This document shows positions 27,195-64,000 of a stretch of 64,000 nucleotides of DNA, in pieces. The notes beneath the pieces are model-generated. The model made no database searches. It had not been told where the DNA came from and saw only the letters and a program-made list of their open reading frames with translations. Position numbers and translations under genes: made by a program. Position 1 is the first letter of the stretch; each line of letters begins with the position of its first letter. Location of the stretch: positions 2,111,346 through 2,175,345 of the forward strand of contig AP018269.1 of the NCBI GenBank assembly GCA_003994795.1, read 5' to 3'. The stretch comes from Cylindrospermum sp. NIES-4074. GTDB taxonomy: Bacteria; Cyanobacteriota; Cyanobacteriia; Cyanobacteriales; Nostocaceae.

Positions 27195-28605
27195 CCCTCT
27201 TCCATCAGTCTAGGCAGAAGAAAAAGATAAATCCTCAAATTGTGCATCGTTGACAAGACAACCAAGGAACTCATTCATAATTTGAATAAGCCATTGAAAT
27301 CCCAGTTGTAAATAGTGATTGTTAAACAGTGTTATCCAAGGTTTAATTAAACAATAATAAATGTAGGGTTGGAGTAGTAAGCGTAAGTTATTTAGGCAGT
27401 TATTCCAACCAGAAATGTTGTGCCACCAGGGATGTCGGCGCAATTTTAATAACAGGTCTTTATCCGGATAATCATGACCAAGGCTTTCTGTTTGATTCAT
27501 GCCGAAGAACTGGAGGTTAACCATTAAAAAGACACTCTCAACAATTTCCCACCAGCGTTCAATCTGATGGTAATCAGTACACCTAAAGTCTGCCCATCCC
27601 AACTGGTTTTTGCACTGTTTAAACCCATATTCTATCCAGGTTCTTAAGCCATAATTATTGCCAATCTCTGCTGGTGGTGCATCTGATAAATTGGTCATTA
27701 CATACCAAGTTGAATTATCTGGTAGCTCAATCTTATCAGTGGTAATTTGCCAATATCTCAACCTCCTGCGCTTGCCAAAAACAATTTCCCTTATGTAACG
27801 TTCCTCACTTTTACCGTTGGAGAAAATCCGCTCAAATTGTTTCCACCTATTGAACCTAACTCTTTGTTCCGAAGGCATCCAGACTGCATGATTACTTCTA
27901 ATTGCCACAATGAACCGTAATTGATATTGATTTAATACACTCAGAAATGTTTCACTCTCACCATACAAACTATCTGCTAATACTAATTCAAATTTAAATC
28001 CCATTTCTGGCAGTTCCGTAATTATTTCTCCTGCTAATTGAGTTTTTGTCTTGTATACATCCTCTTTCTTGAGTCGCTTTTTAGGTTTATAGATTTTGAA
28101 GAGCAATGGAAATGTTATTCCTTGCCATAGCCCATAAGCATTTACTGATACTATTCCGTTCTCGGTTTTCCCCAGATTTCCTATATACTGTCTGTCTACA
28201 TAATCCGTTGTTTTTCCTTTCTTCTTATCTCCTGTCTCATCAATAATCAAGATGATTTTATTTTCTCCTACTCTTTGGGCAATTATCTCTAATCTTTTTT
28301 TTCTAACTGACTCTACTGACCAAGGTGATTCTGTCAAGAAATGAAGCAAGGATTGTTCATTGTTTAACCCTACAGCTTTGGCTATTGCAGGTAATGTCTT
28401 CCTCTTTATTTCTGCTGTCATTCCTACGTGCAATCTCTTGAATGCTTCGTAACTTCTCACTTCTGGAAATAATTTTTGGTACGCTGTGCAATAATTATCT
28501 ATAAATGCCACTGTCGGATTCGCAATTCTTGGCTGTGTCATAACTACAGCCTCCCTTTCAGCTTTCTACTTTTATTTTACTCTTTCCCACACTGATGGAA
28601 GAGGG
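27195..28605 (-). mobile_element. Complete IS701-type insertion sequence
   Basis: About 1.41 kb bounded by terminal inverted repeats of 20 bp: CCCTCTTCCATCAGTCTAGG at 27195 and, inverted, CCCTCTTCCATCAGTGTGGG ending at 28605 (first 15 identical). It carries one transposase gene on the minus strand. Its right boundary abuts directly an inverted, truncated second copy, so no target duplication can be assigned. Confidence 0.88.
27210..28541 (-). CDS. IS701-family DDE transposase
   Basis: Protein of 443 residues, intact. DDE-type landmarks are IILIIDETGDKKKG (first Asp), the second Asp in LVLADSLYGE, and an acidic residue in RTWIEYGFKQCKNQLGWADFR (YREK-like region). The GDKKKG-TDYV-RQYIGNLGK block is characteristic of the IS4/IS701 group. 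The C-terminal 182 residues are repeated identically in the inverted truncated copy at 28609-29160, which shows that the duplication is recent. Confidence 0.92.
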   Translation of the reverse strand: MTQPRIANPTVAFIDNYCTAYQKLFPEVRSYEAFKRLHVGMTAEIKRKTLPAIAKAVGLNNEQSLLHFLTESPWSVESVRKKRLEIIAQRVGENKIILIIDETGDKKKGKTTDYVDRQYIGNLGKTENGIVSVNAYGLWQGITFPLLFKIYKPKKRLKKEDVYKTKTQLAGEIITELPEMGFKFELVLADSLYGESETFLSVLNQYQLRFIVAIRSNHAVWMPSEQRVRFNRWKQFERIFSNGKSEERYIREIVFGKRRRLRYWQITTDKIELPDNSTWYVMTNLSDAPPAEIGNNYGLRTWIEYGFKQCKNQLGWADFRCTDYHQIERWWEIVESVFLMVNLQFFGMNQTESLGHDYPDKDLLLKLRRHPWWHNISGWNNCLNNLRLLLQPYIYYCLIKPWITLFNNHYLQLGFQWLIQIMNEFLGCLVNDAQFEDLSFSSA

Positions 28606-29175
28606 AGGTTGAGATATTGGCAAATTACCACTGATAAGATTGAGCTACCAGATAATTCAACTTGGTATGTAATGACCAATTTATCAGATGCACCACCAGC
28701 AGAGATTGGCAATAATTATGGCTTAAGAACCTGGATAGAATATGGGTTTAAACAGTGCAAAAACCAGTTGGGATGGGCAGACTTTAGGTGTACTGATTAC
28801 CATCAGATTGAACGCTGGTGGGAAATTGTTGAGAGTGTCTTTTTAATGGTTAACCTCCAGTTCTTCGGCATGAATCAAACAGAAAGCCTTGGTCATGATT
28901 ATCCGGATAAAGACCTGTTATTAAAATTGCGCCGACATCCCTGGTGGCACAACATTTCTGGTTGGAATAACTGCCTAAATAACTTACGCTTACTACTCCA
29001 ACCCTACATTTATTATTGTTTAATTAAACCTTGGATAACACTGTTTAACAATCACTATTTACAACTGGGATTTCAATGGCTTATTCAAATTATGAATGAG
29101 TTCCTTGGTTGTCTTGTCAACGATGCACAATTTGAGGATTTATCTTTTTCTTCTGCCTAGACTGATGGAAGAGGG
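28606..29175 (+). mobile_element. Truncated, inverted copy of the same IS element
   Basis: This 570-bp segment is the 3' part of the neighbouring IS in opposite orientation and ends in the same terminal repeat (29156-29175). Together with 27195-27766 it forms a very long, apparently perfect inverted repeat around an 837-bp spacer. The junction with the full copy lies in a shared GG at 28604-28605. Confidence 0.88.
28609..29160 (+). pseudogene. 5'-truncated IS701 transposase
   Basis: The frame encodes only the C-terminal 182 residues of the transposase (from RYWQITTDK) and is identical in sequence to the intact copy. It lacks the first two catalytic aspartates, so it cannot be an active transposase. 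An apparent start at 28609 is created by the junction (TTG). Confidence 0.88.
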
Positions 29176-63350: not shown

Positions 63351-63662
63351 TTAATGGTCTGTATTTTCTTCATGCAGAAAAACTTGTTTTATATCTTGTG
63401 AACCGTGCAAGATACGCACAATCTCAACTCCTGCTTCTATTGGACGGTAAAAAATTAAATAGTTTTTCACTGGTAAACTTTGTAAAAAAGGCGCTAATTC
63501 CGATCGTTCTCTACCCATTTGGGGAAATTTAGCCAGTTTAGGAAAGGTTTCTCGCAGATTATCGAAAAGATTATCAGCAGCTTTTAAGTTATTTTGCGCG
63601 ACATAGTTCCAGATATTCTCAATATCTTGTGCTGCTTGAGTAGAAATCCGAAATTGGCTCAT
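63351..63662 (-). CDS. parE: ParE/RelE-superfamily toxin
   Basis: Protein of 103 residues with the ParE pattern: ISTQAAQDIENIWNYVAQNN at the start, FPKLAKFPQMGRERSEL in the middle and LIFYRPIEAGVEIVRILHGSQD near the end. ParE toxins inhibit gyrase, whereas RelE relatives cleave mRNA; the motif set fits ParE better. It is intact. The antitoxin gene lies upstream at 63879 but is now separated by a 205-bp miniature element, so the usual translational coupling is lost. Confidence 0.9.
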   Translation of the reverse strand: MSQFRISTQAAQDIENIWNYVAQNNLKAADNLFDNLRETFPKLAKFPQMGRERSELAPFLQSLPVKNYLIFYRPIEAGVEIVRILHGSQDIKQVFLHEENTDH

Positions 63663-63679
63663 ACAATATCATTCTGAGT

Positions 63680-63884
63680 CATAGGTGTCAACTTAAGTGA
63701 AAACTCATGTCCCGCAAGGAACTGAAGTTCCTTGCTAATAACAAAAGTCATCTCAAGATGACTAAATATCCCGAAAAATCTTTAGTCTACTTCAGTAGAC
63801 TTTGGCTATTAGCCTTGAAATTCATTTCCAGGCGGGTGTGTAAGCCAACGGACAAAGGATTTCTAGCTTAATTTGACACTAATG
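63680..63884. mobile_element. 205-bp miniature inverted-repeat element between parD and parE
   Basis: Ends CATAGGTGTCAACTTAA and, inverted, CATTAGTGTCAAATTAA match at 14 of 17 positions. ATTCTGAGT is duplicated at 63671-63679 and 63885-63893, a 9-bp target duplication. Internal hairpins include GGAACTGAAGTTCC, CATCTCAAGATG and AGTCTACTTCAGTAGACT. Removing the element and one target copy restores an ATGA overlap of parD and parE. Confidence 0.9.
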
Positions 63885-64000
63885 ATTCTGAGTCAATTTT
63901 TGTTGTCCCCGTGTTTTAATATCTTCAAAAAAACCCGAAAGCGTCTCTTCGTTATATTCAGTATAATCACCGCTATCAAGCTGTTTAATGCCGATATTGA
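63879..64000 (-). CDS. parD: ParD-type antitoxin, partial, 3' end altered
   Basis: The gene runs off the window; 39 codons and the stop are visible. The C-terminal sequence IKQLDSGDYTEYNEETLSGF and FFEDIKTRGQQKLTQN is typical of ParD antitoxin tails that bind the toxin. The last residue (His) and the TAG at 63881-63879 come from the inserted miniature element. Before insertion the frame would have ended ...LTQNDIV with its TGA overlapping the toxin ATG. Toxin-binding residues appear retained, so the antitoxin is probably still active. Confidence 0.8.
   Translation of the reverse strand, partial: NIGIKQLDSGDYTEYNEETLSGFFEDIKTRGQQKLTQNH

What the first reader, a model, noticed from the sequence alone, without database searches (positions are those of the whole stretch)
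63671..63893. Miniature element splits a parDE operon, with exact reconstruction
A 205-bp element with imperfect 17-bp inverted ends and a 9-bp target duplication (ATTCTGAGT) sits at the end of parD. Excising it with one target copy recreates a normal ATGA overlap and a parD ending ...LTQNDIV. The element now supplies the last parD residue and stop. This changes the toxin-antitoxin ratio control because translational coupling is lost.
Basis: seen in the sequence. Interest (0 to 1): 0.7.

Follow-up and report, generated by a model that had tools for sequence, protein, structure and literature searches.

The report
Mobile mini-element splitting a toxin-antitoxin operon
A 205-base non-coding jumping element has landed where an antitoxin gene overlaps its toxin gene in a filamentous cyanobacterium; it is an ordinary member of a large family, but its position may change how much toxin is made.

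Summary
A 205-bp element (63680-63884) with imperfect inverted ends sits between two copies of ATTCTGAGT at the antitoxin-toxin junction. A same-genus genome (G001) has the natural empty site with one target copy; 0 of 21 homologous loci inspected carry an insert there. It is a miniature inverted-repeat element (MITE): of 40 end-pairings from loci fetched from this genome, 22 have perfect 9-bp duplications and 9 have one mismatch. Its probable driver was traced: IS4-family insertion sequences with the same ends in G005 (1454/1458 bp) and ends one base different in G001 (1415 bp, perfect 9-bp duplication in 4 of 5 copies). The window's own genome showed only a 41% homologue of that transposase. 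Two corrections: the antitoxin is Phd/YefM, not ParD; and 'coupling is lost' is unproven, since a 30-codon frame starting inside the element ends in the toxin's own ATGA, although three terminator-like stems favour less toxin. The toxin frame is broken in other ways in both same-genus genomes searched, so the operon may be decaying. Verdict: real, largely ordinary, a good test case.

The parts
63680..63884 (.). 205-bp MITE
   Evidence: sequence; 13 other places in the genome match at least 200 of the 223 query positions at 77-96% identity (only 40 of 82 first-look candidates were scored); folds at -69.3 kcal/mol (minus strand, z -5.70) and -70.4 (plus strand, z -8.20)
63680..63697 (+). terminal inverted repeat, CATAGGTGTCAACTTAAG
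   Evidence: like the ends of the IS4-family IS in G005 and G001
63867..63884 (-). other terminal inverted repeat, CATTAGTGTCAAATTAAG on the minus strand
63671..63679 (.). target duplication ATTCTGAGT, toxin side
63885..63893 (.). target duplication ATTCTGAGT, antitoxin side
63351..63662 (-). ParE-family toxin, 103 aa, uninterrupted frame
   Evidence: PF05016 E 2e-19
63879..64000 (-). 3' part of the Phd/YefM antitoxin gene (whole frame L065:1725-2081, continuing beyond the window); last codon and stop come from the element
63659..63751 (-). 30-codon open frame starting in the element (ATG 63751; an inner ATG at 63682 gives 7 codons) and ending in the TGA of the toxin's ATGA
   Evidence: nothing shows that it is translated
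63663..63691 (-). promoter-like TTGACA (element end) - 17 - TATTGT (native), directly before the toxin ATG
   Evidence: 2 sites in the scanned 801 bases against 2.2 in shuffles, so no excess; by the usual spacing (recalled) a start site would lie inside the toxin frame
63709..63801 (-). three terminator-like stem-loops between antitoxin stop and toxin start (63801-63784, 63763-63746, 63722-63709)
   Evidence: 3 found against a mean of 0.6 (sd 0.8) in shuffles

Best explanation
The 205-bp feature is a non-autonomous MITE, moved in trans by an IS4-family transposase that recognises ends of the form CATNNGTGTCAASTTAAG and duplicates 9 bp (copies, ends and duplications are shown; the mobilisation itself is inferred). 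It inserted, probably after the split from the same-genus genome G001, into the last codons of a Phd/YefM antitoxin gene that overlapped a ParE-family toxin gene by ATGA. Compared with G001, the antitoxin has a single histidine in place of its last three residues; the toxin frame is whole and the 17 bases before its ATG are those of the empty site, because the target duplication repeats nine of them. The two genes are now 216 nt apart with a strongly folding spacer. Most likely effect (inferred, about even odds): less toxin per antitoxin, by loss of the original stop-start overlap and by stem-loops that may end or expose the message, partly offset if the element's own short frame re-couples translation. 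In the two other same-genus genomes searched the toxin frame is broken in other ways, so I read the insertion as a tolerated step in decay of this operon, not as an evolved regulator.
For: Copies: 58 matches in the genome, 13 others near full length. Duplications: 22 of 40 pairings perfect, 9 with one mismatch, 9 with three or more. Empty site L194; 0 of 21 loci inspected with an insert. Driver: seven G005 units of 1454/1458 bp and one G070 unit of 1410 bp with these ends; transposase PF01609 and NF033592, Y(2)R(3)E(6)K motif; G001 IS of 1415 bp with perfect 9-bp duplication in 4 of 5 copies examined. Fold and stems. Toxin frame from the ATG is 67 aa in G001 and 50 aa in G002 against 103 here; G001 carries a different insert in the toxin gene.
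Against: No matching autonomous IS was found in the window's own genome: one homologue, 41% identical, around which I saw no matching ends by eye. G030 has 60 exact ends and no transposase match, so presence of ends and of a driver do not go together everywhere. Of the seven G005 units, flanking 9-mers are identical in 1, one base off in 3 and unlike in 3, and several have a stop in the transposase frame. The 30-codon frame speaks against a simple loss of coupling. No transcript or protein data.
Confidence: 0.85

Rival explanations
1. The insertion is neutral for the toxin-antitoxin pair: the element's own short frame, ending in the same ATGA, re-couples translation, and the toxin is made about as before.
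For: 30-codon and 7-codon frames end in the ATGA; the 17 nt before the toxin ATG are kept; toxin frame whole.
Against: I see no strong ribosome-binding site before either ATG (by eye, strings); three terminator-like stems lie in between. Over 80 ends of the family the open stretch in the frame of the terminal codon varies from 6 to 65 codons, so it is no conserved feature.
Confidence: 0.3
2. The insertion was selected as a regulator: it separates toxin from antitoxin and sets a new ratio under control of the element's stem-loops.
For: Uninterrupted toxin and antitoxin frames here, in contrast to broken toxin frames in the two same-genus genomes searched; strong fold.
Against: One insertion in one genome; no insert of any kind at this junction in the 21 homologous loci inspected.
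Confidence: 0.08
3. Ancestral spacer of the operon that relatives have lost.
For: None found.
Against: 0 of 21 loci inspected carry it, including two same-genus ones; perfect target duplication; copies elsewhere with their own duplications.
Confidence: 0.01

Closest known systems
IS4-family insertion sequences, subgroups IS231, ISH8, IS4Sa (PMC2266710, passages and Table 1 seen)
   Same: Both ends fit the printed end consensus of IS231, ISH8 and IS4Sa; the 9-bp duplication lies in the IS4Sa range of 8-10 bp; the driver has the YREK motif.
   Different: The element codes for no transposase and by eye shares only its ends with the driver IS; the subgroup is not settled (duplications printed as 10-12 bp for IS231 and 10 bp for ISH8).
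Nezha MITE of cyanobacteria (seen only as a reference-list entry in PMC10969869; the paper itself was not looked up)
   Same: MITE in cyanobacteria.
   Different: Ends and duplication could not be compared; identity with this family is untested.
187-nt MITE of Microcystis PCC 7806 (PMC11448079, passages seen)
   Same: MITE in a cyanobacterium, reported as often lying between toxin-antitoxin systems and transposable elements, with short frames over the ends and a stem-loop fold.
   Different: Its ends begin GGCTCTTCG, the duplication is 8 nt and the proposed driver is ISL3 family.
Rickettsia palindromic elements (as described in PMC10969869, passage seen)
   Same: Small repeats that add coding sequence to the gene they hit.
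   Different: Those are described as in-frame fusions; here one residue and a stop are supplied.

Membership tests
MITE | short, no transposase gene, terminal inverted repeats | tested here: met
   205 bp; longest listed frame inside is 54 aa (not searched against families); paired ends
MITE | target-site duplication at insertion | tested here: met
   ATTCTGAGT on both sides; 22 of 40 pairings perfect, 9 with one mismatch
MITE | multiple dispersed copies | tested here: met
   56 of 100 genomes (own included) have a match, some only to the core
MITE | empty site in a relative | tested here: met
   L194
IS4 family (driver IS) | DDE transposase with Y(2)R(3)E(6)K | tested here: met
   G005: YRRRWRVEDAFLLTK, D155, D224, E324; NF033592 185.1 bits, cut-off 115. 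G001: YREK found, my script did not locate its two D
IS4 family (driver IS) | duplication of about one helix turn | tested here: met
   9 bp, perfect in 4 of 5 G001 copies; in G005 1 of 7 identical, 3 of 7 one base off, 3 of 7 unlike
IS4 family (driver IS) | transposase shown to move this MITE | not testable with these tools
   needs a bench assay
ParDE operon | ParD-type antitoxin | tested here: not met
   antitoxin matches PF02604 PhdYeFM_antitox
Phd/YefM-ParE type II toxin-antitoxin pair | antitoxin and toxin domains adjacent, antitoxin first | tested here: met
   PF02604 and PF05016; adjacent, ATGA overlap in relatives
Phd/YefM-ParE type II toxin-antitoxin pair | toxicity and its neutralisation | not testable with these tools
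   no assay

The most novel reading that the evidence does not exclude
The element family carries portable expression signals on both ends: pointing outward, 66 of 80 ends hold a perfect TTGACA and 72 of 80 end in ATG, and since the duplication is 9 bp a hit near a stop-start overlap can rebuild a small coupling frame. If so, insertions at gene junctions would rewire rather than break operons, and the toxin-antitoxin case would be a natural experiment in changing the ratio of the two proteins.
Probability: 0.08. Interest if true: 0.5.

Novelty: new member of a known kind. Interest (0 to 1): 0.3.

Why it matters
It gives a matched pair (split junction here, empty site in a same-genus genome) for asking how much toxin-antitoxin gene overlap matters, and it links a MITE family spread over Nostocaceae-type genomes to a concrete IS4-family candidate driver. 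The kind of event itself is well known.

Tried and rejected
Ancestral spacer: rejected by empty sites. Structured RNA family: three sub-threshold Rfam matches (27.1, 25.9, 24.6 bits against cut-offs of 100, 50, 50), taken as chance. Driver among the PF01609 transposases of the own genome: 22 matches; in none of the 22 loci was there a pair of ends within two mismatches; the 7-copy and 2-copy IS have other ends; L186 had one end-like site and no matching partner among its listed inverted repeats. Internal-deletion origin from the IS: beyond the ends the MITE and the IS look unlike (by eye). A new promoter for the toxin: rejected because the start would fall inside the toxin frame and the count shows no excess over shuffles. 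Phage records: no match; plasmid records: 2, both Nostoc. Literature: searches. GTGTCAACTTAAG occurs in no held paper; MITE, toxin-antitoxin, insertion and translational coupling occur together in one held paper, a broad review (listing only). PMC4963859 (passages) lists cyanobacterial Phd/YefM pairs but gave nothing on gene overlap. Wolk et al. on Anabaena insertion sequences is not held, so this family may already be described there.

Caveats on counts: the 40 pairings come from loci I had fetched, not from every base of the genome; they have 39 distinct left ends because one end of L021 was paired twice; the window's own element is one of the 40. The 9-bp targets look near-palindromic in 16 of 31 (chance 5.4%), but 18 of 40 insertions match motifs of one repeat family (GTAGGGGCACAGC...), so they are not independent. 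In one search my count of the length of the G001 insert failed; the figure of about 122 bp is a hand count from the printed stretch.

Full report
Check. The sequence at 63680-63884 is a 205-bp element with imperfect inverted ends, flanked on both sides by ATTCTGAGT. On the minus strand the antitoxin frame runs into the element and ends H-TAG (63881-63879); the toxin ATG is at 63662. The toxin matches the ParE family (PF05016, E 2e-19); the antitoxin, most of which lies past the window end (L065:1725-2081), matches Phd/YefM (PF02604, E 5.1e-9), not ParD.

Empty sites. A search with the toxin gave 16 loci of named cyanobacteria. None of the 19 has an insert at the junction; nor have two more distant ones (L118, L119; 51% and 49% toxin identity), so 0 of 21. 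By the stretches displayed, the antitoxin frame ends in the ATGA in 17 of the 19; in L102 and L109 it stops a few codons earlier. L099 shows a frame break further up and L110 a different N-terminal part. L194, from the same genus, has exactly the expected junction with one target copy; its antitoxin side is identical in 557 of 573 aligned bases.

Family. The element has 58 matches in its genome, 40 of 82 candidates having been scored; 13 besides itself are near full length (77-96% identity) and many cover only the palindromic core, which also occurs as a repeat of its own, in part clustered (4025.6-4026.3 kb). The end motif occurs 69 times against 5 in the reversed control. In 40 end-pairings of 165-272 bp, 22 have perfect 9-bp duplications, 9 one mismatch, 9 three or more. 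Several size classes share the ends; 10 of the 40 are 205 bp long. Eighteen of 40 match motifs of another palindromic repeat, GTAGGGGCACAGCANTGCT.... Matches to the element occur in 56 of 100 genomes and exact ends in 22 of 60, the window's own genome counted in both.

Driver. The spacing of exact ends in G005 pointed to units of 1454-1458 bp. Eight stretches were fetched, seven of G005 and one of G070. L201 holds an unbroken 440-aa transposase that matches PF01609 and NCBI's IS4-family model with the YREK motif; five other G005 copies have a stop in that frame. Flanking 9-mers are identical in L199, one base off in L200, L201, L206 and in L203 (G070), and unlike in L202, L204 and L205. In G001, of the same genus as the window, a 1415-bp IS with ends CATTGGTGTCAAGTTAAG has perfect 9-bp duplications in 4 of 5 copies; its transposase is 55% identical to that of G005. 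The window genome has one homologue at 41% on contig C3 without visible matching ends. So the driver is probably lost here, or distant, or absent from the assembly. The ends fit three printed IS4 subgroup consensus strings; the 9-bp duplication fits IS4Sa best (PMC2266710 Table 1).

Effect. With the insert the genes are 216 nt apart. The element folds at -69.3 kcal/mol on the message strand (z -5.70) and holds three terminator-like stems against 0.6 expected in the scanned stretch. A 30-codon frame from ATG 63751, and a 7-codon one from ATG 63682, end in the toxin's ATGA. So the plain statement that coupling is lost cannot be upheld; less toxin is my preferred guess, at about 0.5. The frames are not a conserved family trait.

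Setting. From the ATG the toxin frame is 67 aa in G001, where another insert with ends GGGAGTTCCAAC (imperfect, about 122 bp by hand count) lies in the gene, and 50 aa in G002, where similarity ends after about 36-42 codons. All three same-genus genomes seen (the window's, G001, G002) thus carry some lesion in this operon, here at the junction only. This favours decay under weak constraint over a designed switch.

Known or new. MITEs between toxin-antitoxin systems in Microcystis (PMC11448079, passages seen) and gene inactivation by MITEs in Anabaena (PMC10969869, passages seen) are on record. I rate this a new member of a known kind. The two papers most likely to describe the same family (Nezha; Wolk et al.) I did not see.

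Noticed in passing
L194 (G001:C2:1288500-1291500), toxin gene: A different insert with imperfect inverted ends (GGGAGTTCCAAC..., about 122 bp by hand count) interrupts the homologous toxin gene in a same-genus genome.
   Followed up: partly
loci, e.g. L003, L004, L055, L088, L089, L090: Many copies sit in the centre of palindromic repeats GTAGGGGCACAGCANTGCTGTGCCCCTAC; most of the G005 and G001 IS copies seen also sit in palindrome-like targets (GGCANTGCC, GCNNNNNGC).
   Followed up: partly
G000:C1:4025569-4026342: A cluster of repeats resembling only the core of the element (its middle ~110 bp), without its ends.
   Followed up: no
80 ends of the 40 pairings: Outward-facing TTGACA in 66 of 80 ends and terminal outward ATG in 72 of 80.
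   Followed up: partly
window 27540-28043 and 28639-28830 (G000:C1:2138885-2139388, 2139984-2140175): PF01609 transposase matches within the window; no end of this MITE family within two mismatches in those loci.
   Followed up: no
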